Shown here piece by piece: positions 7,423-58,392 of a stretch of DNA of 64,000 nt. The position numbers were made by a program, and so were the translations under genes. The notes beneath the pieces are model-generated. The model saw nothing but the letters and a program-made list of their open reading frames with translations. It was not told the DNA's origin and ran no database searches. Position 1 is the stretch's first letter. Each line of letters starts with the position of its first letter. Source of the DNA: Vallitalea guaymasensis (lineage in GTDB: Bacteria; Bacillota; Clostridia; Lachnospirales; Vallitaleaceae); assembly GCF_018141425.1 (NCBI RefSeq), contig NZ_CP058561.1, forward strand, positions 4,712,001 to 4,776,000. The letters run 5' to 3'.

Positions 7423-8257
7423 TTGTACTATCTATTAATTGTTTATAATAAAACTAATTATGATCAATTCTTAGAAATGATTTTTCCAGAGTATACTCCT
7501 GTTATAGGTCAAAAGATATTAACGTCTGAATTTATTACAGTTGGAGAAATATTTAAAATACATGGTTGTATAAGTTTGCCAGAAAGTCTAGTATTTACTA
7601 GTGATGACTATGAATTATTTAATTCTAAGAAAAAATACTTAAGTGCAATTATTCACTTTTTTTTTGGAACATCCACTTGTTTTTATTGGATATAGTGCCA
7701 GTGATCTAAATATACAGTCAATATTATCTGATATTGATGAGATTGTACCTAATCTTTTTATAGTTGATTATAAGGAAAATATTATAGAAGACAATACATA
7801 TCCTACAGAAAAGCTCATTAATTTATATGATAAAAAAACTATTTGGATTAATTCAGTAGCTGCGAAAGATTATGATTGGATTTATGAAGCTTTTACAAAT
7901 GAAAGTGCTATAGAAAGAGTAAATCCTAAATTATTATGAGCATTAATATCTCATACATATGAATTAATTAGAACAGATATACCTAAACATCGAATAGAAA
8001 TAGATTACGATATGCTTAAGTCAGCGTTAAAAGATGATAAAGACATTAATAAGATATTTGGAATAACTAATATTAGTGAACCTTCGGCATTTAATATTGC
8101 ATTTCCTTACACACTACTAGAAGTTGCAAAGCAACTAGGTTATGATTATTGGTCTTATGCGAATGATTTAATAAATAGGATTACAAAAGAAACGGGTATC
8201 AATATTAAAAGTTCAGATAATAAATATCATATTTCTATTTGTAAATATATTAAATAG
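7423..8257 (+). pseudogene. decayed SIR2-like domain protein
   Basis: The three pieces read as one SIR2-like (NAD-binding) protein. The first (7423-7660) has TNYDQFLE, EIFKIHGCISLPESLVFTSDDY; the second (from about 7655, other frame) has FLEHPLVFIGYSASDLNIQSIL; the third continues in the same frame after a TGA at 7937-7939 through 8257. NYD, KIHG and GYSxxD are the hallmarks of SIR2-like defence effectors. The frame changes at a run of nine T residues (7657-7665). There is no proper 5' end: the first half of the domain (the GxGxS nucleotide loop) is missing. Such domains act as NAD+ hydrolases in several anti-phage systems. Here the gene is dead unless the sequence is wrong. Confidence 0.7.
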
Positions 8258-32991: not shown

Positions 32992-33384
32992 ATGAATAAG
33001 ACTATGATTCAATATTTAACTCTAAGTGAATTAATAAAAGTCTATAGACTTACTAACGTAAAACTTGAAGAAATTTTAGATGAAGATTTAATAATAGTAT
33101 CATATTTTATTGATAGTATAGTGAGAGATATACCACAAAAAGATTTTATAATATTGATACCAACTAATGAAATTATTTGTGGTCATAAAATATTGTCATT
33201 GGTTAACTTGTTTTTTGACAATGTGCTAAAGTTGAACAATTCTGCATTACTAGATGTTAGAATAAATGGAAAGAAATATAAACAAATAAATTCAAATATT
33301 AGAGATAAAATCGAACTATCAATATTTAGAGTTATTTTTGTAAATGATGTATATAAAATGTATTATCAGTTTGAAATTTGTTAA
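32992..33384 (+). CDS. degenerate DUF262-like protein
   Basis: A 130-residue protein that follows the core of the next gene's DUF262 domain but lacks its active motif. FIDSIVRDIP matches FIESLLLGLP, IICGHKIL stands where LIIDGYQR is expected, and NGKKYKQINSNIRDKIE matches GKSFKQLEPEEQRRIK. The normal DGxQR motif is therefore replaced by CGHKI. A catalytically dead partner or regulator of the canonical protein is the natural reading. The start at 32992 (or 32980) follows AAGGAG. The gene ends 51 bases before the canonical DUF262 gene. Confidence 0.55.
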   Translation: MNKTMIQYLTLSELIKVYRLTNVKLEEILDEDLIIVSYFIDSIVRDIPQKDFIILIPTNEIICGHKILSLVNLFFDNVLKLNNSALLDVRINGKKYKQINSNIRDKIELSIFRVIFVNDVYKMYYQFEIC

Positions 33385-34288
33385 AATATGTTATACAATA
33401 ATATTAATATTATTAATATTTGAAAGGAGATAAATATGGTAATTGATGAAATAAATAATGATGATGATTATTATGATAATGATGACCTTTATAATATAAC
33501 TTCTTGGGGGGCTGATTTATCTTTTAGAGAGTTAATATCAATGTATAAGGAAGGGGAAATGATTAAACCTGAGCTACAAAGAAAATATGTGTGGGACAAG
33601 TCTGAAGCAAGTAGATTTATAGAGTCTTTGCTTTTGGGGTTACCGGTTCCTAGTATATTTTTAGCTAAAGTTGAAAAAGATAATAAGTTAATAATTGATG
33701 GTTATCAGAGGATTATGACAGTTTATGACTTTGTTGAAAGGGGAATCTATTCAAAAGATAGTTCTGTATTTAAATTGTCTAACTCTAATAAAATAAATAA
33801 AAGATGGAGGGGTAAAAGCTTCAAGCAGTTAGAACCTGAAGAGCAAAGAAGGATAAAAAGTACTACAATTCATGCCATAATCTTTGAACAAAAAACACCT
33901 AAAAATGATTCGAGTTTGTATCAAATATTTGAGAGAATAAACACAAGTGGCAGAACCTTAACAGCTCAAGAAATAAGAAATTGTATCTATCAAGGGAGTT
34001 TTAATGATCTTCTTTTCAGGATTAATGAAAATTCTAAATGGAGAGAACTTTATGGTGGTAACGTAGATAGTAGAATGAAGGATATAGAGTTTATTCTTAG
34101 GTATATTGCATTATCAAAAAATTTCTTACCTACAGACAAAAAGCAAATTTCACTTAAAAAACATTTAAATCATGTAATGAAGATATTAAGGAATAGTTCA
34201 GAAGAAGATATTAAAAGGTTTGAAGAAAGTTTTAATAATACAGTTAAATACATTTATGATAACTTTGGTTGCAGTGCCTTCCATAATC

Positions 34289-35944
34289 CAATGTCATTAA
34301 GTTAAGAAAATAGAGTTTCTGTATATTAATAATGCAGAGCTCTTTTTTTATACGATTTTATATTAATCTTTTAAAAAATGCTTGACATTTACCCGAAAAT
34401 TTGTGGCGAAGCCTCTTAAATGAATTATTTAAAGGAGGTTTAGCTATGAATAATACTTATGCTAATACAATTAAAAATCATCTATATGACAGTATCTCTG
34501 AACTTGATACTATTTCATCTTTATTTCTTCAAAATCCTGAGAAAGATTTTACTCGTATTAGAAAACTTGATTTTAGGACAATGGTAGAAATTCTTCTAAC
34601 TATGGGTGGTCAAAATTTGAAGCTTGAAATTATGAATTATTTTTCCTTTGGTATTAATACACCTACTGCTTCTGCATTTGTACAACAACGCCATAAGATT
34701 TTACCTGATGCTTTCAATTATCTTTTCCATGATTTTACTAAAAAGGCTATGAACTTTTCTAGAACTTTTAATGGATATAGACTTCTTGCCGTTGATGGTT
34801 CTAACTTAAGTATTTTCTATAATCCTGATGACACTGAAACTCATTTTCCAAATCGGGCTAATGCGAAAGGTTTTAATCACTTACAGATTAATGCTCTTTA
34901 TGATATTTGTAATAAAATTTTTGTTGACGTTGAGATTTATCCTGGACGAAGACAAAATGAAAGAAAGGCATTGCTACAGATGATTGATCGTATGGAAGAC
35001 ATATCTGACAATACTATTATCATCGCTGACAGAGGATATGAGGGTTATCATGTTTTTGAGTATATAAAACAGAAGAACTTGAACTGTCTATTTAGAGTAA
35101 AAGATATAACTGGCAATGGAATAACATCCAGCCTGAAGCTTCCACATGAAGATTGCTTTGATGTTGATTATCGTATATTAGTCACAAGAAGACATACTAA
35201 AGAAATCAGGACCAATCCAGACAAATATAAGTGTATTAGAAAAGGAAATCGATTCGATTTTCTACCAGTAAATTCAAAAGATACATATCCTATAGAGTTT
35301 AGAATTGTAAGATTTCCTATTTCAGAAGATACCTATGAGATATTAATTACTAATCTAAATAGGAATGACTTTCCAATTGAAAAATTAAAAGAGATATATC
35401 ATATGAGATGGGGAATAGAGACTGCTTTTAGAGAGTTGAAATACACTATCGGTCTTATTAATCTTCACTCCAAAAAAGTGGAATTTATAGTACAAGAAAT
35501 ATATGCTAGACTTATAATGTATAATTTTTGTGAACTAATTACATTAAACACTGTTATAAAGAAGACCAAAGGTACTACTAAACATATGTATCAAGTGAAT
35601 TATACTATTGCGATAGCAATTTGTAGACATTTCATTAAATATAAGGGGCATGAGCCCCCCGATATTGAAGCACTAATTGCAAAAAATATTTTGCCAGTTA
35701 GACCTGGTAGAAAAGACCCTCGAAAAGTCAAAAAGCAGGCTACTGTAGTTAGCTTCTTATATAGAATAGCATAAGGAAACAAAATACTCAAATGTATTTT
35801 CTAAAGCAGAGATATCTCTGTTTATTAATAATGCCAAAAATAAAATCTTAACAAGAGGTAAAAGTAAAACTCATCTATTGGCAACCATGAAAGCATCAAT
35901 AGATGAATTTTTATATCTGTCAAAGGCTTAACTTAATGACATTG
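34289..35944 (+). mobile_element. IS4-family insertion sequence, complete
   Basis: A 1656-base element with perfect 18-base terminal inverted repeats: CAATGTCATTAAGTTAAG at 34289-34306 and its complement at 35927-35944. It is flanked by a perfect 10-base target duplication, TTCCATAATC (34279-34288 and 35945-35954). One intact transposase gene is inside. Perfect repeats, a perfect duplication and an intact host frame on both sides indicate recent insertion. Confidence 0.95.
34446..35774 (+). CDS. IS4-family DDE transposase
   Basis: A 442-residue transposase with the DDE residues in their usual surroundings: LAVDGSNL near residue 117, IIADRGYEGYHVF near 195, and YHMRWGIETAFRELKY near 320, the last being the Y-(2)-R-(3)-E-(6)-K signature of the IS4 group. 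It starts with ATG after AAAGGAGG. The reading frame is complete, so the element is probably active. It was placed inside the DUF262 gene in the same orientation. Confidence 0.95.
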   Translation: MNNTYANTIKNHLYDSISELDTISSLFLQNPEKDFTRIRKLDFRTMVEILLTMGGQNLKLEIMNYFSFGINTPTASAFVQQRHKILPDAFNYLFHDFTKKAMNFSRTFNGYRLLAVDGSNLSIFYNPDDTETHFPNRANAKGFNHLQINALYDICNKIFVDVEIYPGRRQNERKALLQMIDRMEDISDNTIIIADRGYEGYHVFEYIKQKNLNCLFRVKDITGNGITSSLKLPHEDCFDVDYRILVTRRHTKEIRTNPDKYKCIRKGNRFDFLPVNSKDTYPIEFRIVRFPISEDTYEILITNLNRNDFPIEKLKEIYHMRWGIETAFRELKYTIGLINLHSKKVEFIVQEIYARLIMYNFCELITLNTVIKKTKGTTKHMYQVNYTIAIAICRHFIKYKGHEPPDIEALIAKNILPVRPGRKDPRKVKKQATVVSFLYRIA

Positions 35945-36200
35945 TTCCATAATCTCTCATCAACTAATAATGAGCTTGTAAAGAAGCTTAATCCAACAGT
36001 GTTTGATACGATAATGGTATCAACACATTATATGTTAATAAGCGGTAATCATATTTCAGGGTGCGGTAATCTTGAAGAAAAAAGATTAGAACTGCTTAGG
36101 GATGAAAAGTTTAAAGAATATACTAGTGAAAGGACCACAAATATAGTTAACATCTTAGGCAGATTTTCTAGGGGTGCCAAGATATTATATGGTATTGAAT

Positions 36201-36689
36201 ATGAATAATAACAATGTAGATAGAGAGATACAAGACTGTATAACAGAATTAGGTAAAATAAAACTAATTATTGATCAAGATAAATTAAGATCAACAAATC
36301 AATATCTTACAAAATACAGTATTATTAGGGCATGTGGCTCAATAGAACGAGCTTATAAGGGTTTAATATGTGATTATGGTAATAGCTATGATATTCAAAC
36401 AATTGGTACATATATTTATAATACAGTAAAGAAAAGTTCTATGAATCCTAGTTATAGTAATATGATTAATTTGTTAAAAAAATTTAATGAATCTTGGGGG
36501 ACAGAATTGAAGGAAAAAGTGGATAATAGGGAAAATTCATCAAAATTAAGAACTTCACTAGAGTCGTTGAATATGGTTCGTAATCAATTCGCGCATGGTG
36601 GAAATCCAACTATAACAATTGATGATATCATAGAATACTATAGTGATGCTATTGTTATCCTAGAAGATTATGAGGCGGTACTGCAATAG
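36201..36689 (+). CDS. HEPN-domain protein (MAE_28990/RiboL-PSP-like)
   Basis: A 162-residue helical protein with the HEPN RNase signature R-x4-H in VRNQFAHGG (Arg 126, His 131), followed by TIDDIIEYYSDAIVILEDYE. HEPN proteins are RNases in many toxin-antitoxin and defence systems. The ATG lies eight bases inside the end of the DUF262 gene, so the two are translationally coupled and probably form one system. After the IS insertion its translation may be altered, because the normal upstream translation now stops early. An in-frame ATG at 36174 has no ribosome binding site. Confidence 0.75.
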   Translation: MNNNNVDREIQDCITELGKIKLIIDQDKLRSTNQYLTKYSIIRACGSIERAYKGLICDYGNSYDIQTIGTYIYNTVKKSSMNPSYSNMINLLKKFNESWGTELKEKVDNRENSSKLRTSLESLNMVRNQFAHGGNPTITIDDIIEYYSDAIVILEDYEAVLQ

Positions 36690-37063: not shown

Positions 37064-37711
37064 ATGAGTTTTACATTTACAGATTGGAAACATAGAATAC
37101 GAAATAGAGCTGATATTACTGGAATGGTTACCCATCTGACTAAACCAAGTGAATTAACTTTTAATATGTCAGATGAAGAGATTAATTTAAAAGCAGTAGG
37201 GAATTTAATTAAGATACTAGAAGATAAAAGATTAAATGGAAGTGATACTAGTAGCGGATTTATAGTCGGTAAGAGACCCGTAGTTTGTTTTCAAGATGCT
37301 CCATTACATGGAATAATTCAAAATGTTGAATATGAGTTAGAAAAACGAAATAGTACACAAATAAAAAAAATCAGATATTGTGGAATTGGATTATCTTTTT
37401 CTAAATTCTATGTCTATACTTATGGTGGAAGACCTGTAATATATGATAATACAATAGAAGCAAAAAAATATCTACCTGAAGAACATTATTGGAGAATTGT
37501 AAATTTTATTTTAGAAACACCTAATCCTAAAATAATTGATTGGACTCATGAAAGGGAATGGAGAGTGCCTGATGAATTTATATTTAAATATAATTATACA
37601 CATGTAGTACTTTATGATAAAGCTACATATGATTATTTTTTAGAAAACTGTAGTAAAGAAATAATTAATAAATTACATGGTATAACTATTCTCAAGAGTT
37701 TATTAATGTAA
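37064..37711 (+). CDS. uncharacterised defence-island protein with HEREWRVP motif
   Basis: A 215-residue soluble protein. Noted motifs: GMVTHLTK (residues 20-27), KRPVVCFQDAPL (69-80), CGIGLSFSKFYVYTYGGRPVIYD (106-128), LPEEHYWRI (137-145) and IDWTHEREWRVPDEF (158-172). The last resembles the E-x-E-W-R region of DUF2971-like proteins, which occur next to defence genes. No catalytic role can be assigned from sequence alone. It starts with ATG after AAAGGAG and appears to be a single-gene unit. What it does is unknown. Confidence 0.6.
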   Translation: MSFTFTDWKHRIRNRADITGMVTHLTKPSELTFNMSDEEINLKAVGNLIKILEDKRLNGSDTSSGFIVGKRPVVCFQDAPLHGIIQNVEYELEKRNSTQIKKIRYCGIGLSFSKFYVYTYGGRPVIYDNTIEAKKYLPEEHYWRIVNFILETPNPKIIDWTHEREWRVPDEFIFKYNYTHVVLYDKATYDYFLENCSKEIINKLHGITILKSLLM

Positions 37712-38069
37712 ACTGTATGAACTATAGATACGATATATTTTATGTACATAATTCTCAGGGTATATAAACAGATTTTTTTAGAACTATATACAGTGAAGTG
37801 TAAAGGAAGATAATGTTGCAGGAAAAAAGATTGAAAAATATTAGGATAGGCTTCGATGAGTGAGGTAACATTTTATAATAAAATACTCCCTCTTGCTACG
37901 CACATCTCTTAAACGGGTGCGAGTATCGCCAACGAAGGAAACGAAGGAAGGTTCTGCGAGTCAGGTTCAGAGACGTCGGGAGTACGGTATGTTATGTATA
38001 ATTATATTATATTCTCTTTTGGGAAATTATTATAAATAATTAATGAATAAATGCTTTGGAGGAAATCTC
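37712..38069 (+). other. intergenic stretch holding a GC-rich structured element
   Basis: About 358 bases without a gene. Mostly AT-rich, except 37884-37984, which is listed separately. No promoter could be chosen with confidence. Confidence 0.4.
37884..37984. repeat. GC-rich structured intergenic element, about 101 bases
   Basis: An isolated GC-rich block in AT-rich DNA whose ends pair (TACTCCC at 37884-37890 and GGGAGTA at 37978-37984). Inside, GCTACGCAC can pair imperfectly with GGGTGCGAGT, and there is a purine-rich AACGAAGGAAACGAAGGAAGG stretch (two related units of nine bases). There is no open frame. It could be a small RNA or a dispersed palindromic repeat. Only a genome search can decide. 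Confidence 0.45.
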
Positions 38070-39080
38070 ATGGGTGAAAGAATAGAAAAATGGACTATTG
38101 AAATGATAAAACAAGGTGTCAGTGAACAGCATATTGACAATATGAAAAGAAAGAGATTAAGAAGTATATGTCCTTATGTGTGTTACTATGATAAAGAAAA
38201 AGAAGGCAAATTTCTTACTCTAGTGGATATTAAAAAAATAATTGGGATAAATACTGGTTGGATTACGGCTGGAAGAACGGTATATAACTTATTTTTTTCA
38301 GTAACAGGTGAAATTTCAGATTCAGAAATAGAGTCACTTCATTACAATAGAATTAAAGAAAATATTGATAGTTTAATTAGTAATGGGATTTCATATCAGC
38401 ACCACTTTTATGTAGATAAAAGCAGAGAAAATATATTAAGAGATGGGTTACCCAAACTTCAATATTTCCAAGATGATGATATATATTTTTCAGGAGCTAC
38501 ACATAGGACAATAAGTGCAATGATGTTTAATGCTCCTAAAATAATTGGTTATGTAACTACGTATAAAAAAAATGAAACTAAATTTGCCAATTTTCAGATT
38601 TATAAGCAAGTACAACACAAATGGAACCATCTTATTGATATAGAATTAAAATATGTTGAATTAATTAGCGACTCCTATAATGAATATATAACCCTTAAAA
38701 TTAAAGATTTTCCACAACTAAAATTAATAAAATTTCAGGATCCTATTATAGAAGCAGAGGATCTAGATTTTGACAATACAAATAAAATCGAATTATTTAA
38801 AGAAAAAACTAACGAATTAATCTATAAAATTAAGGAAATAGATGAAGTCTATTCTAAAAAATTGAAGTTAATTTTAAAGATTCCATTAGTCTTTTCATTG
38901 CTAAAAACATTTAAATGCTATTTTTTTTATAGTATATTATATGAATTTAGATATCAAAAAGATCCATATTTAAATATTGACCAACCTATAGATGAAATAA
39001 TAAATGGGATTAAAAAAAAGTTATTTTTAGATATAATAAATGAGAACAAACCTATTAAGAGAAATTATGAAAGGTATTAG
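38070..39080 (+). CDS. ParB/Srx-like domain protein of the defence island
   Basis: A 336-residue protein. Residues about 115-165 (ENILRDGLPKLQYFQDDDIYFSGATHRTISAMMFNAPKIIGYVTTY) resemble the ParB/sulfiredoxin-like fold, in which a GxHR motif is central; here it is GATHRT. The first 100 residues and the C-terminal third, which is helical and includes a hydrophobic stretch near 280-300, are unrecognised. The start at 38070 is taken from GGAGGAAATCTC upstream. The gene stands alone between the structured element and the restriction-modification operon. A defence or DNA-handling role is inference. Confidence 0.5.
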   Translation: MGERIEKWTIEMIKQGVSEQHIDNMKRKRLRSICPYVCYYDKEKEGKFLTLVDIKKIIGINTGWITAGRTVYNLFFSVTGEISDSEIESLHYNRIKENIDSLISNGISYQHHFYVDKSRENILRDGLPKLQYFQDDDIYFSGATHRTISAMMFNAPKIIGYVTTYKKNETKFANFQIYKQVQHKWNHLIDIELKYVELISDSYNEYITLKIKDFPQLKLIKFQDPIIEAEDLDFDNTNKIELFKEKTNELIYKIKEIDEVYSKKLKLILKIPLVFSLLKTFKCYFFYSILYEFRYQKDPYLNIDQPIDEIINGIKKKLFLDIINENKPIKRNYERY

Positions 39081-39541: not shown

Positions 39542-42118
39542 ATGATTACATCAGAAGAAATTAAAAGAAGATTATGGGATGGAGCAAATGAATTAAGAGG
39601 CTCCATGGATGCAAGCCGTTACAAAGATTATATGCTTGGATTAATGTTCTACAAGTTTCTTAGTGATAAAACATTAGAAACTTTTAAAATAACTGCAGGA
39701 GTAGGTCAACTATCAGAAAAAGAATTAGTTGATGAGTACGCTAAGGCAAAGACTGAATATGGAGATAATCTCAATAAAATGATACAAGGTGTGTTGGGGT
39801 ATTATGTATCGCCAGAATATCTTTATCAAACATGGATTAAAGATATTAATTCTGGGAGTTTTGAAGTTCAAAAGGTAACAGATAGCCTTAATAGTTTTGA
39901 AAGAACAATAGCTGTCTCTGGTGATTCAAGTGACTTTATAGGACTATTCTCTAGTTCGACTCTTGACTTAACAGATACAGCTTTAGGTAGCAATCTACAT
40001 GAAAGAAGCAAAAATATTAAAGCACTAATATTACTATTTGCAGACCTTAACATGGTAGCATTACAAAAAGGGGATATTCTTGGTGATGCATATGAATATT
40101 TGATTGGTCAGTTCGCAATGGAATCAGGAAAGAAAGCAGGAGAATTCTATACCCCACATCAAGTAAGTGAAGTTATGGCTCAGATAGTTGCCAAATCATC
40201 AGAAATAAAATCAATATATGATCCAACAGTTGGGTCTGGTTCATTACTATTAACAGTGAAAAAGCACTTGGGTAAGAATGTTCAAAGAGATTTATCTTAC
40301 TATGGTCAGGAAAAAAATACAGCTACCTATAACTTGACCCGAATGAATCTTCTTCTTCATGGAGTGCGTCCAGAAAAAATGACAATCAAAAATGGGGATA
40401 CTCTTTCCAATGATTGGCCAGAAGATCCTCAAAACCCCAATGAAGGAGTGCAATTTGATGGAGTTGTTATGAATCCACCCTACTCAGCAAAAAATTGGAA
40501 TAAAGCAGGATTAAAAGTAAGCGATCCTCGTTTTGAAGTAGCAGGCACTCTACCACCAGATTCAAAAGGCGATTTTGCATTTTTACTACATGGATTATAT
40601 CACCTAGGGACCAATGGAACCATGGCAATTGTATTACCACATGGAGTTTTATTTCGTGGTTCTTCAGAAGGAGAAATTAGAAAAAGATTACTAGATAAGA
40701 ATTATATTGATACAATTATAGGTTTACCTAATAATCTATTTACTAATACAGGGATTCCAGTTGTAATTATAATACTAAAAAAGAATCGTAAAATAGATGC
40801 TCCAGTACTTATTATAGATGCATCAAATAGCTTTATAAAAATAGGAAAACAGAACGTACTTCAAGAAAAAGACATTGCCAAAATAGTAGATGTGTACATA
40901 GAAAAGGCGGAGATAACAGGATATAGTCATCTTGCTACACGTGAAGAAATCAAGAAAAATGAATATAATATGAATATTCCTCGTTACGTTGAATCAATCG
41001 ATACAGAAATTAGCCAAGATGTAGATGCTCATTTGTTGGGTGGAATTCCACAAAAAAATATTGACGATCTATCAATATTACAAGCACTAGTCCCAGATGT
41101 CTTAAATAGCTACTTGCAAACAATTCGTCCTGGATATGTCAATCTTACAAAGTCAGTGGATGAATTAACAAGCGAGATTCTAAATGATGTTCGGATTAAT
41201 AATATGTCCGATGAAATCAGGACAAAAACAAAGGATTATATAGAAAAGTATTGGAATATCTTACGAAATGTTGATAATTCCACTGATATTACAAATCTTA
41301 TGGGAGAAATGCTTGAAAGCATCAAAAACATCTTATCAGACTATAAGTATATTGATGTATATAATGGATATCAAGTTATTGCGGAAATATGGAAAGATGC
41401 ATTAACACATGATACAGAGCTTATTGCTAATGAGGGATTCTATAAGATGGGTCGTACCAGAGAACCTAATATGATAACAAAGGGTTCAGGAAAAAACAAA
41501 CGAGAAGAACAAGATGGATGGGTAGGAAGTATCATTCCTAATGATTTGATTGCACAAGAACTTTATCATGCAGAATTAGAAGCAATTGAAAATAAAAAAG
41601 ATTCAATTAGAGAGATAGAAACAGAATTAACTGAATTAGTAGAAGCTGCAAAAGATGAAGATAGTAAAGAATATAATGCTTTATATGATGTTTTGAAAAA
41701 GAACAAAGACGATGAAATAGGTAATGCTTTTGACAATAAATTACTAAAAACAGAGTTAAAGAAAGCTCAAAAGGATACAGAAGAATATCATTTACTTAAG
41801 AAAGTTGAAACATTAATAAGTAATAAATCTTCCCTAATTAAAGCTGTTAGAATTGAGGAAAAAGAGCTAAAAGATGCTGTTGGGGAACGTATTCTAGTAT
41901 TAACAGATGCTGAAGTAGATATGCTTATGTATAAAAAATGGTTTGGAAGTACTGTTGAAAAAATGGTCGGGTTAGTACATATTCCATTGAAAGCTGAATT
42001 AAACTCATTACAAATGATACAGGAGCGTTATGCAGATACACTATCAGAGATAGATATGGAAATAGATAGATTGATGAGTGAATTTGAAGCACTCAAGGAT
42101 GAATTGGTGGTGAAATAA
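39542..42118 (+). CDS. hsdM: type I restriction-modification methyltransferase subunit
   Basis: An 858-residue N6-adenine methyltransferase. HsdM_N comes first (residues about 5-150, EEIKRRLWDGANELRGSM). The catalytic domain follows, with the AdoMet motif DPTVGSGSLLL near 226-236 and the catalytic NPPY near 310-313. A long coiled-coil-rich C-terminal extension runs from about 520 to 850. The core is normal; the extension makes it much longer than the classical enzyme of about 500 residues, as in several Firmicute systems. It starts with ATG after GGAGG. The stop overlaps the ATG of hsdS by one base (TAATG). No damage was seen. Confidence 0.95.
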   Translation: MITSEEIKRRLWDGANELRGSMDASRYKDYMLGLMFYKFLSDKTLETFKITAGVGQLSEKELVDEYAKAKTEYGDNLNKMIQGVLGYYVSPEYLYQTWIKDINSGSFEVQKVTDSLNSFERTIAVSGDSSDFIGLFSSSTLDLTDTALGSNLHERSKNIKALILLFADLNMVALQKGDILGDAYEYLIGQFAMESGKKAGEFYTPHQVSEVMAQIVAKSSEIKSIYDPTVGSGSLLLTVKKHLGKNVQRDLSYYGQEKNTATYNLTRMNLLLHGVRPEKMTIKNGDTLSNDWPEDPQNPNEGVQFDGVVMNPPYSAKNWNKAGLKVSDPRFEVAGTLPPDSKGDFAFLLHGLYHLGTNGTMAIVLPHGVLFRGSSEGEIRKRLLDKNYIDTIIGLPNNLFTNTGIPVVIIILKKNRKIDAPVLIIDASNSFIKIGKQNVLQEKDIAKIVDVYIEKAEITGYSHLATREEIKKNEYNMNIPRYVESIDTEISQDVDAHLLGGIPQKNIDDLSILQALVPDVLNSYLQTIRPGYVNLTKSVDELTSEILNDVRINNMSDEIRTKTKDYIEKYWNILRNVDNSTDITNLMGEMLESIKNILSDYKYIDVYNGYQVIAEIWKDALTHDTELIANEGFYKMGRTREPNMITKGSGKNKREEQDGWVGSIIPNDLIAQELYHAELEAIENKKDSIREIETELTELVEAAKDEDSKEYNALYDVLKKNKDDEIGNAFDNKLLKTELKKAQKDTEEYHLLKKVETLISNKSSLIKAVRIEEKELKDAVGERILVLTDAEVDMLMYKKWFGSTVEKMVGLVHIPLKAELNSLQMIQERYADTLSEIDMEIDRLMSEFEALKDELVVK

Positions 42119-43398
42119 TGAGTGAAAATGAGAAAAATGTACCGAAAAGACGATTTAAAGAATTTGATAAAAATGACGATTGGGAACAGAGTATAATTGG
42201 AAAAACTGGATATTTTTACTATGGTAAAAGTGCACCAAAGTGGTCGGTGACAAAAGATTCAAAGACACCTTGTGTTCGATATGGAGAATTATATACGAAA
42301 CATACAGAAAAAATTGATAGAATCTATTCATATACAAATATTCCTAGAAAAAATTTGAAATTTAGTACTGGCAAAGAAGTTCTAGTTCCACGAGTTGGAG
42401 AAGACCCTCTAGATTTCGCAAATTGCAGTTGGCTTAGTATTTCGGACGTTGCTATTGGTGAAATGATTTCTGTATATAATACAGAACAGAATCCTCTATT
42501 TACGGCATATATGTTCAATGCTCTACTTAAATATGAGTTTGCTAAACGTGTTGAGGGTGGAAATGTTTCTAATTTATACTATGTGTATTTAGAAGATATT
42601 CCTGTTTCTTTCCCGAGTATTGATGAACAAGAAAAAATAACAACGTTCTTGACTAATATTTCCAACCTTATTACCCTTCATCAGCGTAAGTTAGAAAAGA
42701 TGAAAGCATTAAAAAAAGCATATCTTACGGAGATGTTTCCTGCTGAAGGAGAATGCAAGCCAAAACTAAGATTTGCTGGTTTTACTGACGATTGGGAACA
42801 GTGTAAGTTTGAAAATGCATTCACTCATTTACAAAACAACTCTTTTTCAAGAGCCCAGTTAAGCTATGAAAAAGGTGAGGTATTAAATGTCCATTATGGT
42901 GATATTCTGGTTGAATACGGTGAATGTTTAGATGTAAATGATGATGTAATCCCCCTTATTGAGAATAAAGATCTTAGTGATAAATATCTTAATTCATTTA
43001 TAGAAAATGGTGATATTATTATTGCTGATGCTGCTGAAGATGAAATAGTAGGAAAATGCTGTGAAATCAAAGGTTTACAGGGAGAAAAGATGATATCAGG
43101 ATTGCATACAATCCCATGTAGACCAAGCATGAAATTTGCTACAGGGTATTTAGGATATTATATGAATTCATACGCATATCATGATCAACTTTTACCTTTG
43201 ATGCAAGGAACAAAAGTAAGTTCAATTTCAAAATCAGCACTTACAAATACATTCATTTGTTACCCTAGAAGTATTGAGGAGCAAGAAAAAATTGGGGCTT
43301 ATTTTATAGAATTAGATAACCTTATCACCCTTCATCAGCGTAAGCTTGATAAACTACAAAATATAAAAAAAGCATACCTAAATGAAATGTTTATTTAA
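42118..43398 (+). CDS. hsdS: type I restriction-modification specificity subunit
   Basis: A 426-residue protein with two target-recognition domains. Each begins with a (D)DWEQ motif (residues about 21 and 223) and each is followed by a conserved helix ending LITLHQRKLEKMKALKKAYLTEMF or LITLHQRKLDKLQNIKKAYLNEMF (near 181-205 and 401-426). The two repeats permit domain swapping. The recognition site cannot be read from the sequence. It is translationally coupled to hsdM. Both domains look intact. Confidence 0.95.
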   Translation: MSENEKNVPKRRFKEFDKNDDWEQSIIGKTGYFYYGKSAPKWSVTKDSKTPCVRYGELYTKHTEKIDRIYSYTNIPRKNLKFSTGKEVLVPRVGEDPLDFANCSWLSISDVAIGEMISVYNTEQNPLFTAYMFNALLKYEFAKRVEGGNVSNLYYVYLEDIPVSFPSIDEQEKITTFLTNISNLITLHQRKLEKMKALKKAYLTEMFPAEGECKPKLRFAGFTDDWEQCKFENAFTHLQNNSFSRAQLSYEKGEVLNVHYGDILVEYGECLDVNDDVIPLIENKDLSDKYLNSFIENGDIIIADAAEDEIVGKCCEIKGLQGEKMISGLHTIPCRPSMKFATGYLGYYMNSYAYHDQLLPLMQGTKVSSISKSALTNTFICYPRSIEEQEKIGAYFIELDNLITLHQRKLDKLQNIKKAYLNEMFI

Positions 43399-43413
43399 AA
43401 AGGAGCGTAAATT

Positions 43414-46400
43414 ATGAGCAATGTACCTAAAAATGCTTCTGAAAGGACTTTTCAGGAGCATTTTGTAAAAGAACTAGTAAAATATAAATGGAAGTCTCCT
43501 GATTTCTTAAACGGAAATAAGAAGAAAGTTACAGTATCCGATCTAATTAATTATTGGCGAAGTGAGTTGAATCGTATAAATGCCGACCAACTTGAAGGCG
43601 TAGAATTAACAGATAATGAATTTGCACAGGTGATGACTAAGGTAGGTCAGATCAGCAATAGTTATGAAGCTGCTAAAATATTATCTATTGAAGAATCAAC
43701 AGGTAAAATTGATGGAATTTATCGTGATGATAATCCAAGGATAACTAGGAAACAGATTACTCTAACTATCTTAAAAAAAGCTGCGGTAAGTGGCGGTGAC
43801 TCAAGTTATCGTGTGGCAAGGGAGGTAGTAACTCCTAATAATAATAGATTTGATATAGTGTTATTAATTAATGGATTACCCTTAATTAATATAGAACAAA
43901 AACGTACGGATAAATCATTAGATGAAGCGTACGGTCAGTTTATCAGATATTATAGAGATGGTGAATACTGTAATAACTTCATGGCATTTTCACAGATGAT
44001 GGTAATAACTACGGAGATAGAAACTCGTTATTTTGCAACACCAAAATCCATTAATGATTTTAATCCTGTGTTTGTTTTCCATTGGGCAGATAAAGAGAAT
44101 AAAACGGTAAATAATTGGCAGAAAGTTATTGAGCATTTTTTGATGATACCTATGGCACATCAAATGGTTGGAGATTATTTAGTGATTGATGAAGCAAAAG
44201 AAGAAGAAAACAGGAAGCATATGCTCATGCGTCCGTATCAAGTCTACGCATTGCAAGCAATAGAAGGTGCTGCCTTCGGGTGGGATAATGAAGGAATAGC
44301 ACATGGAGGATTTGTTTGGCATACAACTGGTTCTGGAAAAACAATTACTAGTTTTAAGACAGCATTATTTTTATCTACGCGTGCTAGATTTGATAAGGTA
44401 GTATTTTTGGTTGATAGAAGAGCGTTAGATAGAACTACTAGCGATAATTTTAAGGCGTATGCAGCTTATGAACCAGTAACAGTTGATGATACAAAACATA
44501 CATATCAGTTGAAAAAACAGCTTAAATTACAGAAATCAGGAATTATAGTAACAACGACATTCAAACTTAATGTACTTGTAAAGGAATTAGAAGAAGCTAA
44601 GGACAACACTTTGGCAGATAAAGAAATTGTATTTATTGTAGATGAAGCCCATAGAACAACAATGGGACAGATGATGGGAGTTATTAAAGAATATTTTAAA
44701 AAAAATGGTCTTTTCTATGGATTTACGGGAACACCTCTATTTGATGAAAATAATATTAAAGGGAAAATAAATAAAAAAAGTGAAGTAATTAATACCACTG
44801 AGAAGTTATTTGGCCCCATACTTCATCAATATACCATTGATGAGGCAATTTCAGATGGAAATGTTTTAGGGTTTTATGTGGATTATATCAATACTGGTGA
44901 ATTCAAAAGTCATGACGATTTAAGAGAACAGTTAGTAGAAATAATTAAAGAAGAGCAACCTGAACTTGCGGATAGGGAGATTGAACGTAAGGTACAAGAA
45001 TGGTCTGAAGCAGATGTGGAACTACAGGCTAGTAAAAGAAGTATTTTAACATATCAAGATGAGACACATATGCCAAGAGTTGTCGAAGAAATATTAAATA
45101 ACTGGGAGACTCAGTCTCAGGGAAGAGAATTTAATGCTATCTTAACAGTTGCGTACAAAAAGCGAGTGATTGCATTTTACAATGAATTTAAGAAACAATT
45201 AAATGAGCGTGGAGAAAAACTAAATATTACCATGACATTTAGTTTTGGTAACGAAAATGATACTGATAATATTTCTCCAGCAATTATTAAAGAGATGTTC
45301 AAGGATTACTCTGAGTATACAGGTATTGAATTTATTGCGGGTGATAAAAAACATGGAGAGGACGCATATTTTGAAGACGTAGTGGAACGTGCAACTCGTG
45401 GTGGAAGCAGACGCAATAAGAAAAATATAGACCTCGTGATTGTAGCAGATCAATTACTAACAGGATATGATTCTCAACGATTAAATACATTATATGTTGA
45501 TCGATCTTTGGAACTGCAGGGATTAATTCAAGCATATTCTAGGACAAACCGTGTATTTGGTAAGAATAAAGAGTTTGGAACAATTGTTAATTTTCAGTAT
45601 CCAAGGTTGACTAAACAAACTGTAGAAACTGCATTAAAATTATATGGTAGTGGTGGAAGTAGTAGTAGAGCAATAGTTGATACATACATTGTAGCGGTCG
45701 AAAAATTTAATATAAGTGTTCTAGAAATGGTTGAATCTCTTCCAGATCCTTCAAAATGGGAAGAATTAAAAGATGAAACAGAAGGGAAAGATAAGTTTAT
45801 TATTTCTTTTAAAGATGCAGCAGAACAGTTGAATTTGGTGGAACAGTATTATGAATACCAATGGAATGATGATACATTTGGTATTGACGAACACACTTGG
45901 TTAAAATATGTAGGTGCATATAAAAATTTAACAAGAAAAGAAGGACCAGATGATCCTGTGATAAATATTATTAAACCACTTGTTGGGAAAACAAAGTTAG
46001 CAGGAACACAAGTAATTGATGCAGCTCATTTAATTGGATTGATCGGTTCGAAAGTGAGTAATGTCGATGGTATACAAACAGTAGATGAAGAAATCCTACG
46101 TATAATTCATGAGCAGATTCAAGAACTAAGTGATATGGGTGAGGATAATAAAGCACATTTGCTAAAGGAGTTTGTAGATACTGAATTAGTACCTGGAAAT
46201 TTATCTTATAACTTGAATTTTGATGATGCTTATGATATTTGGAAAAAGGATAAATTAAAAGCTGATATTGATGATTTAGCAGACAGATGGGGCATTGATA
46301 AAGATTGGCTTTTAAAATCTGTGAATGCATTCTCAGTAGCACAAGCTAAAGTGATACCTTATATAGATGAATTAACAAAAAGTGTGGATTATGATAAGGC

Positions 46401-46497
46401 AACAGATAAATCAGCAGGTAACAAATTAAAACATATGATGTTATTAACGGGTAAATTACCAGAGTTGATGGTTGAGATGAAGCAAAAATATGCTTAA
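43414..46497 (+). CDS. hsdR: type I restriction endonuclease/translocase subunit
   Basis: A 1027-residue motor nuclease. The N-terminal PD-(D/E)XK domain has RFDIVLLINGLPLINIEQKR (about 146-166). Two RecA-like helicase domains follow, with Walker A TTGSGKT near 302-308, the DEAH box VDEAHRT near 408-414, and the motif VI region GLIQAYSRTNRV near 705. The C-terminal helical domain that binds the methylase core is last. It starts with ATG after AAAGGAG. The length is normal and no disruptions are visible, so the operon should be active. Confidence 0.95.
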   Translation: MSNVPKNASERTFQEHFVKELVKYKWKSPDFLNGNKKKVTVSDLINYWRSELNRINADQLEGVELTDNEFAQVMTKVGQISNSYEAAKILSIEESTGKIDGIYRDDNPRITRKQITLTILKKAAVSGGDSSYRVAREVVTPNNNRFDIVLLINGLPLINIEQKRTDKSLDEAYGQFIRYYRDGEYCNNFMAFSQMMVITTEIETRYFATPKSINDFNPVFVFHWADKENKTVNNWQKVIEHFLMIPMAHQMVGDYLVIDEAKEEENRKHMLMRPYQVYALQAIEGAAFGWDNEGIAHGGFVWHTTGSGKTITSFKTALFLSTRARFDKVVFLVDRRALDRTTSDNFKAYAAYEPVTVDDTKHTYQLKKQLKLQKSGIIVTTTFKLNVLVKELEEAKDNTLADKEIVFIVDEAHRTTMGQMMGVIKEYFKKNGLFYGFTGTPLFDENNIKGKINKKSEVINTTEKLFGPILHQYTIDEAISDGNVLGFYVDYINTGEFKSHDDLREQLVEIIKEEQPELADREIERKVQEWSEADVELQASKRSILTYQDETHMPRVVEEILNNWETQSQGREFNAILTVAYKKRVIAFYNEFKKQLNERGEKLNITMTFSFGNENDTDNISPAIIKEMFKDYSEYTGIEFIAGDKKHGEDAYFEDVVERATRGGSRRNKKNIDLVIVADQLLTGYDSQRLNTLYVDRSLELQGLIQAYSRTNRVFGKNKEFGTIVNFQYPRLTKQTVETALKLYGSGGSSSRAIVDTYIVAVEKFNISVLEMVESLPDPSKWEELKDETEGKDKFIISFKDAAEQLNLVEQYYEYQWNDDTFGIDEHTWLKYVGAYKNLTRKEGPDDPVINIIKPLVGKTKLAGTQVIDAAHLIGLIGSKVSNVDGIQTVDEEILRIIHEQIQELSDMGEDNKAHLLKEFVDTELVPGNLSYNLNFDDAYDIWKKDKLKADIDDLADRWGIDKDWLLKSVNAFSVAQAKVIPYIDELTKSVDYDKATDKSAGNKLKHMMLLTGKLPELMVEMKQKYA

Positions 46498-49245: not shown

Positions 49246-49628
49246 TTTATCTATAAGTTATATTTAAGTACGTTACCTTATGACCGAAAGGAAAGCGACA
49301 TGAGGAAAACCGCAATAATGAGTATACACTCTAGCGATAAGTTTTGCCTTGAAATTATTTTTAGGAAGAATAATTTGCAATGACTCATAAGGGAAAATAA
49401 TGATACTTCTACCTAGTCCTAAGACATCCTATGGAGGGTAGCTAGTTTAGATACTGGAAAATAAATATCTATGTTTGAGAGAGAATATAGAGATTTTTTA
49501 TGAGCAGATTAGCTAACTGCTGCTTAAATATTATGATATGTTAATAAAACTTAGCCATTGACTAATGTATCAAATTATTTTGATGTAATAGTCAGTTACT
49601 AAATATAAAGAGGTGGAATGAACTAAAA
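49246..49628 (+). other. long leader before the helicase gene
   Basis: About 380 bases with no gene. The stretch 49275-49450 is richer in GC and purines than its surroundings and contains several short complementary segments, so it may be structured RNA. No known riboswitch was recognised. Confidence 0.35.
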
Positions 49629-53309: not shown

Positions 53310-54179
53310 ATGGAACAAACATATAGTTTAAACAACCCTATGCCACCACTATGGCTTATGTATCCACATATAAGCAGATACAGTATAGGATGGCGTATGG
53401 GATATGGTGAAGATTATGCTTATAACTTTTATCAGTGGTATACAAGTTTAAGTGATATTGAACAAAATAAGTATGAAAATATGTTTCCAGAACCAAAGGG
53501 ATGGCTTGGTTGGTACAATGATACACATGAAGATGTTTATGATAACAACATACTTTTATGGGATAAGGATTGTAAATTAAAATATAATCTTCAGCGAATA
53601 CAGAAAGATTTTAGCAAAGGTAAAAAGCTTAAATATATCTTTTTCTGGGGGCATCAGCCTTCTACAGATGGAAAAATTATAAAGAGTTGCATGAGCCAAT
53701 GGTGGAAAAGTTCATTTGCGATTGAAACAGATACATATTGTTGTATGGAGCAATATATGATGGCAGAAAAGGCTAGATTATTTAACGACCATGAAATATT
53801 AGATAAGATATTAAACAACAAAAGTCCTAAGCAAATAAAAGAACTTGGAAGACAAGTAAGGGGATTTGATAATACCAAATGGGAAAAATACAGTGCAAGT
53901 ATTATATTAAATGGTAACTTAGCAAAGTTTCTACAAGATGAAAATCTAAAACAATTCTTAATGAAAACAAAGGATAAGATTCTTGTAGAAGCAAGTCCAT
54001 ATGATAAGATATGGGGAATAGGTCTATCCGCAGACCATGATAATGCAAATAATCCTGTGTTATGGAAGGGACAAAATTTATTAGGTTTTGCCTTAATGGA
54101 AGTAAGGGATGAACTTATTAGGATATGTAAGAATGAGAATATAATAGATTATGAAAAATTGCATAAGCAATTTGACTAG
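53310..54179 (+). CDS. NADAR-family (YbiA-like) protein
   Basis: A 289-residue protein with an N-terminal extension and a NADAR domain (about 110-285): YIFFWGHQPSTDGK, CCMEQYMMAEKARLFND, QIKELGRQVRGFDNTKWEKY, ILVEASPYDKIWGIGLS and LLGFALMEVRDEL. These are the conserved blocks of the fold, including the Glu of the MEQ motif. NADAR proteins hydrolyse N-glycosidic bonds and in some systems remove ADP-ribose from DNA as antitoxins of DarT-like toxins. No DarT homologue is seen in the window. Strong ATG start with AAAGGAG. Confidence 0.88.
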   Translation: MEQTYSLNNPMPPLWLMYPHISRYSIGWRMGYGEDYAYNFYQWYTSLSDIEQNKYENMFPEPKGWLGWYNDTHEDVYDNNILLWDKDCKLKYNLQRIQKDFSKGKKLKYIFFWGHQPSTDGKIIKSCMSQWWKSSFAIETDTYCCMEQYMMAEKARLFNDHEILDKILNNKSPKQIKELGRQVRGFDNTKWEKYSASIILNGNLAKFLQDENLKQFLMKTKDKILVEASPYDKIWGIGLSADHDNANNPVLWKGQNLLGFALMEVRDELIRICKNENIIDYEKLHKQFD

Positions 54180-55557: not shown

Positions 55558-56100
55558 ATGAAAAAATACCAAATAAAAAGACGTATAAAAATAGCACTAG
55601 ATACTCTTAGGGTAAATGATAATTACCTTCTTAAAAATGATGTTAGTGAAAGAAGTATCGCTCATAGATTAGCACTATATTTAGAGAATACGTTTGGAAA
55701 AGAGTTTAATGTAGATTGTGAATATAATAAAGATATTGAACAAGTAAGTGGTGGCAAAAAAATAATGATACTTGAAGATATATGGAGAGAATGTCACAGA
55801 AGCATTAACAGTAATGAAGATATAATAGAGGATGCTGATATTCTTATAGAAAAAAGTGTCATACCAGATATTATTGTACATAAAAGAGGAAGAAACGATA
55901 AGAATCTCATTGCAATTGAGATAAAAAAGTCTTCCAGCAGAGTAAATGAAAACTATGATTTTGAGAAATTAAAGGCGTATACAAGCATTGAAAATAATCT
56001 TCACTATGAATACGGCATTTTTATCAAATTTTATGTCAACCAAAATAGGTATATGGAGCCTAAAATAATATATTTCCAGAAGGGAAAACAAATAGACTAA
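55558..56100 (+). CDS. PD-(D/E)XK-like endonuclease-fold protein
   Basis: A 180-residue protein with ERSIAHRLALYLENTF near residues 30-45, then VIPDIIVHKRGRNDKNLIAIEIKKSS near 99-125. There, PD and ExK are placed as in PD-(D/E)XK nucleases (Asp near 102, Glu-Ile-Lys near 121-123). The rest is alpha/beta. Such proteins occur in restriction and defence loci. A damaged second copy of its 3' end lies at 60957-61091. It is followed by a terminator. Confidence 0.6.
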   Translation: MKKYQIKRRIKIALDTLRVNDNYLLKNDVSERSIAHRLALYLENTFGKEFNVDCEYNKDIEQVSGGKKIMILEDIWRECHRSINSNEDIIEDADILIEKSVIPDIIVHKRGRNDKNLIAIEIKKSSSRVNENYDFEKLKAYTSIENNLHYEYGIFIKFYVNQNRYMEPKIIYFQKGKQID

Positions 56101-56610: not shown

Positions 56611-57882
56611 ATGGGTAAAGATATAAATGGTAAAGAACTAGGGACTGGTATCAGCCAAAGAAAAGACGGTAGATATGTTGGACGTTTTACCAATCGTTTT
56701 GGTAGAAGACCAGAGGTGAAAAGCAGAAGTTTAAAAGAACTTAAGGTTCTTCTTAATGCTGCTATATATGAAGACTTAAATAAATTGAATCATGCTGATG
56801 ATAAGATGACTTTGGATGAATGGTTTGAGAAGTGGATGAAGAACTATAAAAATCAAACCATTTGTGCTAACACTAAAAGTCACTACATATCAATTTATGA
56901 AAAGCATATTTCATCACCCTTAGGAAAAAAGAAAATGCTTAATATTACACAACTTAAGATATTAGAGATTTTGAATAATTTAGATTCTAAAGGATACCAG
57001 TATGAGACACGTAATAAGGTAAGAATTCTATTACAGGATATGTTTGATAAAGCTATGATTAATGAAATTGTTTCAAAAAATCCAGCAAAAGGTATCAAAA
57101 TGAAAACCAAGGAAAAGGCAGAACCAAAAGTATTGACTCCTGAAGAACAGGCAAGTTTTTTTGAATGCAGTAAGGGATCATTTTATGACAATCTATTTAC
57201 GGTAGCGATATCCACTGGATTAAGACCTGGTGAAGCTTGTGGTCTGACACTTGATGACATTGACTTTGATGAGATGCTCATTGATGTTAATAAGACATTG
57301 GTTTATCAGAAATTTGAAGGAGATAAAAAGAAGATGTTTCACTTTGATCCTCCCAAAACCAAGTCTAGTAAAAGGCAAGTTCCAATGAATCAAAAGTGTG
57401 CTCTTGCTTTAAAGAAACAAATTATGCAAAGAAATGTGATTATGGCAAGACGAACAACAAAGTCGGTAAAAGGTTTTGAAAAACTATTATTTACAACAAA
57501 GTTTGGTACACCTCTTAATGCACAGGTTTATGGTCAAGCTGTTCGAAAGATTATTGACGAGATTAATTTGCTACGTGATGAACTTGAACAAATGGATTAC
57601 TTTTCACCTCACTGCTTTAGACATTCTTTTGCAACAAGGTGCTTTGAAGCAGGGATTAAACCTAAAACAGTTCAGAAATATCTTGGACATGCAACACTAC
57701 AAATGACGATGGATTTATATACTCATGTGTTAGTAGAGCATTCTCAAGAAGAGATGATAAAACTTGAAAAAGTTCTAGATGATACAATGGATGTCTCCGA
57801 ATCTATGATTGATGATCAGTACAAAAAATTCACTGAGAAAGAAGAGCAAAACAACTGTGTTTATCTGTTTAAGGCAAATTAG
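56611..57882 (+). CDS. int: tyrosine-family integrase of the ICE
   Basis: A 423-residue integrase similar in layout to Tn916 Int. It has an N-terminal arm-binding domain (GTGISQRKDGRYVGRF), an SAM-like core-binding domain (about 65-165) and a catalytic domain. The catalytic Arg is in STGLRPGE near residue 204, the HxxR box is HCFRHSFATRC near 333-343, and the nucleophilic Tyr is in MTMDLYTHV near 370. Full length and intact. The repeats just after it are probably its arm-type binding sites. The left attachment site is outside the window. Confidence 0.93.
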   Translation: MGKDINGKELGTGISQRKDGRYVGRFTNRFGRRPEVKSRSLKELKVLLNAAIYEDLNKLNHADDKMTLDEWFEKWMKNYKNQTICANTKSHYISIYEKHISSPLGKKKMLNITQLKILEILNNLDSKGYQYETRNKVRILLQDMFDKAMINEIVSKNPAKGIKMKTKEKAEPKVLTPEEQASFFECSKGSFYDNLFTVAISTGLRPGEACGLTLDDIDFDEMLIDVNKTLVYQKFEGDKKKMFHFDPPKTKSSKRQVPMNQKCALALKKQIMQRNVIMARRTTKSVKGFEKLLFTTKFGTPLNAQVYGQAVRKIIDEINLLRDELEQMDYFSPHCFRHSFATRCFEAGIKPKTVQKYLGHATLQMTMDLYTHVLVEHSQEEMIKLEKVLDDTMDVSESMIDDQYKKFTEKEEQNNCVYLFKAN

Positions 57883-58109: not shown

Positions 58110-58124
58110 TATGAAAATAAAAAA

Positions 58125-58392
58125 TAAAGGCGAAGAAGAGAAGTAGTAAATATACTTGTATTGTTCAGAGAGAAGATGGGTGGTGCGAATCTTCACAATC
58201 AATATATTGAAGCAGTCTCGGAGCCTTGAACCGAAATAATAGTAGGCTTCAACGGAAATCCACCGTTATCATAGGATAGAGTATCGGTAATATGAGTTGC
58301 CTGTACTTGATGAGTGTAGAGATTATCTCTGAATTTAGGTGGTACCACGGATTAAGAATTCGCCCTAAGCTATTAAAAGCTTAGGGTTTTTT
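58125..58392 (+). ncRNA. T-box leader for the alaS-like gene
   Basis: The T-box sequence AGGTGGTACCACGG is at 58337-58350. The AGAGAGAAGATGGGTGGTGCG segment near 58170 is the stem I apical part. The terminator is CCCTAAGCT (58363-58371) with AGCTTAGGG (58378-58386) plus six T. The leader senses uncharged tRNA and lets transcription through into the synthetase gene. GCA in GAAGCAGTC near 58215 is a possible alanine specifier, but this needs structural modelling. Confidence 0.85.

What the first reader, a model, noticed from the sequence alone, without database searches (positions are those of the whole stretch)
32992..36689. Three-gene unit of degenerate DUF262, canonical DUF262 and HEPN, split by a recent IS
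The first protein keeps the DUF262 frame (FIDS...IP, KKYKQI) but has CGHKI in place of DGxQR. The second has DGYQR. The HEPN RNase gene overlaps the second by eight bases. A dead/active DUF262 pair controlling a HEPN effector is an unusual composition and may be an undescribed system.
Basis: partly seen in the sequence, partly recalled or inferred. Interest (0 to 1): 0.72.

Follow-up and report, generated by a model that had tools for sequence, protein, structure and literature searches.

The report
Defence gene pair with odd helper
A widespread bacterial defence gene pair (a DUF262 NTPase and a HEPN RNA-cutting enzyme) is preceded here by a shortened, motif-less relative of the DUF262 protein; a matching arrangement turned up in one viral contig, so the helper may be a real, fast-changing third part, although in this strain a jumping gene has recently broken the system.

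Summary
Genes 2 and 3 form a known-type module: 50 of 53 close relatives (10 phyla) have a HEPN match next to DUF262. The composition is that of PD-T4-2, so the pair itself is not undescribed. Gene 1 is a truncated DUF262 without the nucleotide-site motifs. No close relative was found in the collections searched, but one viral contig (L114) has a separate ORF at the same place, 22-23% identical, also motif-less. So dead DUF262 + live DUF262 + HEPN recurs, once. Unexpectedly, 15 of 53 relatives (14 of them Bacillota) carry an upstream segment fused in frame to DUF262, with an inner ribosome-binding-like site and start; it evolves fast but as protein. Its kinship with gene 1 is only suggestive; most tests fail. 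The IS is recent: five identical copies, 10-bp target duplication. Best reading: a PD-T4-2-like module with a lineage-specific, rapidly diverging upstream regulator. Function is inferred; the AlphaFold model of gene 1 was too poor to use.

The parts
32992..33384 (+). gene 1: truncated, degenerate DUF262 (N-terminal half; CGHKI for DGxQR, QRxxxW lost, second half absent)
33371..33420 (+). promoter-like TTGAAA-17-TACAAT (33371-33399) followed by an AT-only inverted repeat (33400-33409/33411-33420) before gene 2; consensus and by-eye match only
   Evidence: and sequence; not evidence of function
33436..34288 (+). gene 2, part before the IS: canonical DUF262 (DGYQR, QRKYVW, FERIN)
34289..35944 (+). 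IS4-family insertion sequence, transposase 34446-35774, ends CAATGTCATTAAGTTAA...
34279..34288 (.). left copy of the 10-bp target duplication ttccataatc
35945..35954 (.). right copy of the 10-bp target duplication ttccataatc
35945..36208 (+). gene 2, part after the IS: DUF262 C-terminal region (searched as the ORF 35903-36208, which begins inside the IS)
   Evidence: weak, NsnA E 0.015; profile positions 286-369; no Pfam match
36201..36689 (+). gene 3: HEPN (RiboL-PSP-HEPN, PF18735), RNQFAH = R-x4-H motif, overlaps gene 2 by 8 bases

Best explanation
This is an anti-phage module of the DUF262 + HEPN kind, carried as cargo of a conjugative element. Shown: gene 2 has the DUF262 motifs, gene 3 is a HEPN with its R-x4-H motif, the two occur together in 50 of 53 close loci from 10 phyla, and gene 1 is a half-length DUF262 without nucleotide-site motifs whose frame is open far beyond chance. 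Inferred: the DUF262 protein senses infection by nucleotide and nucleic-acid binding, as GmrSD, BrxU and SspE do, and unleashes the HEPN RNase, which stops growth of the infected cell. Gene 1 would dock on the active DUF262 as a dead partner and set its threshold or specificity, which would explain why it keeps the fold half but not the catalytic motifs and diverges much faster than gene 2. In Bacillota relatives an upstream segment at the same place is mostly fused in frame, so that a long and a short DUF262 could be made from one gene. In this strain the IS cuts gene 2 after about three quarters of its length, so the module is probably off.
For: HEPN match beside DUF262 in 50 of 53 close loci; the HEPN ORF begins -106 to +7 bases from the DUF262 end in 48 of those 50 (the other two, L077 and L078, have frame-shifted genes). 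DGxQR in 53 of 53, QRxxxW in 53 of 53, FxRIN in 51 of 53. HEPN R and H invariant in 14 of 14 aligned. PADLOC PD-T4-2_A 2.4e-51 and PD-T4-2_B 7e-8. Gene 1 + L114 ORF as one profile: the first 60 hits among 3987 ORFs are all DUF262 genes, best E 1.5e-8. Gene 1 versus L114 ORF: 0 of 1000 shuffles as high. Upstream part less alike than DUF262 in 11 of 11 pairs that I chose, and less than HEPN in 10 of 10 where HEPN was known.
Against: No function was tested. Gene 1 has no close relative and only one recognised counterpart. No upstream segment was recognised in 40 of 60 tree rows, so it is not needed for the pair. Its codon usage is poorer than that of genes 2 and 3 (19 of 2000 shuffles as good, against 0 and 0). 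The structure model failed (pLDDT 43.4). The fused segments do not match DUF262.
Confidence: 0.5

Rival explanations
1. Gene 1 is only a decaying remnant of a duplicated or neighbouring DUF262 gene, with no present function; the working unit was the two-gene pair.
For: No close relative in the collections searched; catalytic motifs and second half lost; weaker codon signal than genes 2 and 3; the element is already damaged by an IS.
Against: 130 codons open in 78% AT DNA, chance about 5e-7, and 151 codons in L114, about 1.5e-8; a second, strongly diverged ORF at the same place with the same loss of motifs; 22% identity while both frames stay open.
Confidence: 0.27
2. The unit is a toxin-antitoxin module: HEPN is the toxin and DUF262 (with or without gene 1) the antitoxin that holds it in check.
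For: Overlapping genes, HEPN R-x4-H motif; a 3.9-kb E. coli plasmid has four annotated genes, two of them this pair.
Against: Here gene 2 is broken and the HEPN gene is whole, which a live host should not bear unless HEPN is not expressed behind the IS. In the passages read, PD-T4-2 is not among the systems that Vassallo et al. call toxin-antitoxin-like (PMC9519451).
Confidence: 0.2
3. The upstream ORF acts as a translated leader: its translation couples to or tunes the start of DUF262, and the peptide itself matters little.
For: 15 of 15 in-frame segments lead into an inner start with a Shine-Dalgarno-like motif, by a permissive motif list; very fast divergence.
Against: Leader dN/dS 0.32 to 0.89, below 1 in 5 of 5 pairs though one is near 1, and a recognisable family profile argue for a constrained protein; gene 1 and the L114 ORF are separate and end about 50-60 bases before the DUF262 start.
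Confidence: 0.15

Closest known systems
PD-T4-2 (Vassallo et al. 2022, PMC9519451, passages read)
   Same: DUF262 and HEPN PF18735 (composition from PMC10952713, passages read); PADLOC matches to its components A and B.
   Different: DUF262 here scores higher with NsnA (2e-67) than with PD-T4-2_A (2.4e-51); HEPN match is weak (30.7 bits); an extra upstream degenerate DUF262.
Menshen (NsnA; that NsnA belongs to Menshen is recalled, not read)
   Same: DUF262 of the NsnA type.
   Different: Menshen pairs DUF262 with a predicted OLD nuclease (PMC10952713, passage); here the partner is HEPN. Four relatives with an ATPase-like partner were seen apart from ours (L007, L008, L011, L018, partner named by eye).
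GmrSD / BrxU / SspE
   Same: DUF262 with the DGxQR nucleotide motif.
   Different: They carry a DUF1524 nuclease domain; none found here.
RiboL-PSP-HEPN in operon with ParB (Anantharaman et al. 2013, PMC3710099, table passage)
   Same: Predicted the operon type; another row of the same table writes ParB (DUF262).
   Different: No degenerate copy mentioned in the passages read.

Membership tests
DUF262 (GmrSD_N, PF03235), gene 2 | profile match above cut-off | tested here: met
   102.7 bits, cut-off 33.2
DUF262, gene 2 | DGxQR nucleotide motif | tested here: met
   DGYQR; D88, G89, Q91, R92 invariant in 14 of 14
DUF262, gene 1 | homology to the domain | tested here: met
   not found by Pfam itself
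DUF262, gene 1 | nucleotide motifs DGxQR, QRxxxW, FxRIN and full length | tested here: not met
   CGHKI, no QR, ends at mid-domain; motifs in 53, 53 and 51 of 53 relatives
HEPN (PF18735), gene 3 | profile match and R-x4-H | tested here: met
   69.3 bits, cut-off 28.4; RNQFAH
PD-T4-2 | DUF262 gene and HEPN gene side by side | tested here: met
PD-T4-2 | best profile match to PD-T4-2 components | tested here: inconclusive
   component B best but weak; component A second to NsnA
PD-T4-2 | protection against T4-like phage | not testable with these tools
   bench test
Menshen | DUF262 with OLD-type nuclease partner | tested here: not met
   partner is HEPN; composition of Menshen from PMC10952713
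GmrSD type IV restriction | DUF1524 nuclease domain | tested here: not met
   no such match to either piece of gene 2

The most novel reading that the evidence does not exclude
In Bacillota and their phages, DUF262-HEPN defence has a third component: a rapidly diverging, nucleotide-dead DUF262 half encoded directly in front of the active one, made either as a separate protein or, by an inner start in the same frame, as an N-terminal domain on part of the DUF262 molecules. It would be a variable sensor or brake, so far unnoticed because it is read as the start of the DUF262 gene.
Probability: 0.3. Interest if true: 0.72.

Novelty: new variant of a known kind. Interest (0 to 1): 0.52.

Why it matters
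DUF262 proteins are in several defence systems, and how they switch on a partner that is not a DUF1524 nuclease is open (PMC10952713, passages). A dead copy beside a live one, or one gene that makes both a long and a short form, gives a direct handle on that switch. It also suggests that annotated DUF262 starts in Bacillota may be wrong or incomplete.

Tried and rejected
Direct relatives of gene 1: none but itself in 22 genomes of its family and 295 of its order; none in genome contigs, plasmids, phages or viral contigs. Relatives of the L114 ORF: only itself in viral contigs, none in phages or plasmids; genome contigs was not searched with it (cap spent).

That gene 1 belongs to the fused upstream segments: I saw a likeness by eye, but the 17-member profile gives it -2.9 bits, worse than most shuffles (1710 of 2000 as high). 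Leave-one-out on 7 long forms fails for gene 1 and for L114 (52 and 90 of 500 shuffles as high). hhalign of the segments with gene 1 + L114 gives only 2 to 13.5% probability; column shuffles reach those scores in 1 of 200 and 1 of 100, which is the one hint. The segments do not match DUF262 (7 of 100 column shuffles as high). Kept as suggestive.

More members by genome sampling: the close DUF262 subfamily was in 2 of 391 genomes of the class and 2 of 398 of the phylum, the window's own included. One hit (L117) has the same protein as L053; the other (L126) was not looked at further.

Structure: AlphaFold on gene 1 with its two-row alignment gave pLDDT 43.4, pTM 0.31, so no fold search was run. 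The job for the fused segments was never accepted.

Rows dropped: L048, whose long in-frame stretch looks unlike the others (by eye), was left out of the 15; L050 is cut by the contig end and is not in the 15; L077 and L078 were left out of the tree because their DUF262 genes are frame-shifted. L033, L039 and L057 are weak members by leave-one-out (6.8, 5.3, 5.3 bits; best of 20 shuffles 5.9, 6.1, 4.6).

Full report
What is there. The window lies at 4712001-4776000 of a 5.63-Mb single-contig genome. At 32992-36689 are an ORF of 130 aa, a DUF262 gene cut by an insertion sequence, and a HEPN gene. The IS (34289-35944) has a DDE transposase of the IS4 family, matching end repeats and a 10-bp target duplication, and is identical to four other copies in the genome; two further transposases are 50% identical in protein. 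The insertion is therefore recent. It leaves the HEPN gene whole.

Genes 2 and 3. Gene 2 passes the Pfam cut-off for GmrSD_N (DUF262) and gene 3 that for RiboL-PSP-HEPN. PADLOC gives NsnA (2e-67) and PD-T4-2_A (2.4e-51) for gene 2, PD-T4-2_B (7e-8) for gene 3; three relatives tested as pairs (L107, L060, L038) behave alike. A scan of one genome for each of 84,980 species with an alignment of four DUF262 proteins found 210 relatives and kept the best 80. Of these I close (45-66% identity in the best segment), and 50 of the 53 have a HEPN match on the same strand next to the DUF262 gene; the misses are L035, whose DUF262 ORF is cut short, L073, where the contig ends, and L076. Of the other 27, three have a HEPN match. 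The close set spans 10 phyla by record titles. The relatives found in the order of the host are more distant; by eye eight of the 13 have a HEPN-like gene behind DUF262 and four an ATPase-like gene.

Gene 1. BLASTP aligns it with gene 2 over 121 columns at 25% identity, E 6e-5 for the single comparison; hhalign with a 14-row DUF262 alignment gives 85% or 75% probability, depending on the alignment. Controls: 0 of 2000 shuffles reach its score with the 14-row profile or with the profile of the 27 more distant loci; with the close-subfamily profile 3 of 2000 do. Among 3987 ORFs of the 80 loci its first 36 hits are all DUF262 genes. It covers the first half of the domain, with CGHKI for DGxQR and no QRxxxW, motifs present in 53 of 53 close relatives.

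Does the trio recur? A profile search for a second DUF262 in the 80 genome loci gave only two split genes and one weak hit (E 0.0089), but its threshold would have missed gene 1 itself (8.8 bits, E 0.16). The more apt searches, with gene 1 alone and with gene 1 + L114 as one profile (first 60 hits seen), gave no separate upstream DUF262 either; the one upstream ORF among the low hits of gene 1 (L077, E 0.95) belongs to the segments described below. Among seven viral contigs (a second scan found the same seven) one, L114, has a separate 151-aa ORF ending about 60 bases before the DUF262 start. It matches gene 1 (score 78, 0 of 1000 shuffles) and gene 2 (score 91, 0 of 400) and has INQYS in the motif position; against DUF262 profiles it has 11.6 and 13.0 bits (0 of 1000 shuffles each) and 5.7 bits with the close subfamily (6 of 1000). 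The two together match DUF262 by hhalign at 94.5%, E 7.6e-8, score 55.0 against a best of 20.1 in 100 column shuffles, and as a profile put DUF262 genes in the first 60 places. On the DUF262 tree the window and L114 are not shown as sisters, but that part is poorly resolved. So the trio occurs at least twice; one counterpart is thin evidence for a conserved component.

The fused segments. In the 53 close loci the open frame before a fixed anchor in DUF262 is mostly 26-50 codons; four loci have 65-79 (L037, L056, L072 and the contig-cut L050), and 16 have 94-148. Without L048 that leaves 15, 14 of them Bacillota; the viral contig L110 has a long one too (not tested by profile). In 15 of 15 an inner start with a Shine-Dalgarno-like motif (permissive list) lies 25-39 codons before the anchor. 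In L055 and L077 the segment is a separate, overlapping ORF. Counting these, L050 and L110, 17 of 19 are in the DUF262 frame; 16 or more of 19 by chance would be 7e-6. Sixteen of 17 members exceed the best of their 20 shuffles in leave-one-out tests, some barely. The trait is clustered on the DUF262 tree (6 changes, shuffled mean 15.0, 0 of 500). Pfam has nothing above a cut-off for the 8 tried. In 10 of 10 chosen pairs the segment is far less alike than DUF262, and in 9 of 9 less than HEPN; the same holds for gene 1 against L114 (22, 63, 31%). dN/dS is 0.32-0.89 for the segment in 5 pairs; for DUF262 it is 0.04-0.10 in the 3 pairs where synonymous sites were not saturated. It is thus coding and fast-evolving. 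Whether it is a more decayed form of the same DUF262 half is open: direct profile tests fail, column-shuffle tests hint.

Mechanism. DUF262 of GmrSD, BrxU and SspE binds and splits nucleotides, and BrxU shifts between dimer and monomer on NTP binding (PMC10952713, passages). By analogy gene 2 is the sensor and switch, and HEPN the effector RNase. A dead half-copy that keeps the fold but not the site is most simply a partner that modulates the live one. This step is inference.

Literature. Two papers in the listing hold both DUF262 and HEPN: PMC10952713, which lists both for PD-T4-2, and PMC3710099, which lists RiboL-PSP-HEPN in operon with ParB. PMC9519451 reports that deleting PD-T4-2 from its native strain greatly raised T4 plaquing. 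I read passages of these three. The listings of the searches (titles, starts of abstracts) showed nothing on a degenerate DUF262 partner; most papers of subscription journals are not held.

Setting. The window holds a conjugative coupling protein, other secretion ATPases and a phage-type integrase, with a type I restriction system about 3 kb downstream of the unit. I take it as a defence island on an integrative conjugative element; its ends were not mapped.

Noticed in passing
window 39542-46497: Complete type I restriction-modification set (HsdM, HsdS, HsdR) about 3 kb downstream, on what looks like a conjugative element with T4SS coupling protein (2-2107) and integrase (56611-57882).
   Followed up: partly
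window 7423-7939: Two overlapping short ORFs; the first matches a piece of defence proteins (PDC-S25 7.6e-29, ThsA 3e-8); looks like a broken gene. The second was not searched.
   Followed up: no
window 53310-54179 and 55558-56100: Proteins matching PADLOC PDC-M42C (9.6e-47) and PD-Lambda-3_A (1.4e-26) near the integrase.
   Followed up: no
window 38043-39080: Protein of unknown function with a full-length match to phrog_38025 (1.3e-71); 37064-37711 has only weak hits (AbiGi, DUF2971).
   Followed up: no
window 49399-49499 and 58124-58370: Rfam hits: dinG RNA just before a DinG-like helicase gene, and a T-box leader before a gene that looks like alanine-tRNA ligase (by eye).
   Followed up: no
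window 33400-33420: AT-only inverted repeat of 10 bases with a 1-base spacer between gene 1 and gene 2, beside a promoter-like match; could be an operator or plain AT richness.
   Followed up: no
L107 52-1755 (NZ_AP027509.1): 3.9-kb E. coli plasmid whose main cargo is a close DUF262-HEPN pair (DUF262 60% identical); a handy test object.
   Followed up: partly
L109 and L114: In two viral contigs the module sits a short way behind a gene that looks like the large terminase, i.e. as prophage cargo (read by eye, no family search).
   Followed up: no
L010 and L016: More distant DUF262-HEPN pairs preceded by a gene that looks like a DNA cytosine methyltransferase and overlaps the DUF262 gene (read by eye).
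   Followed up: no
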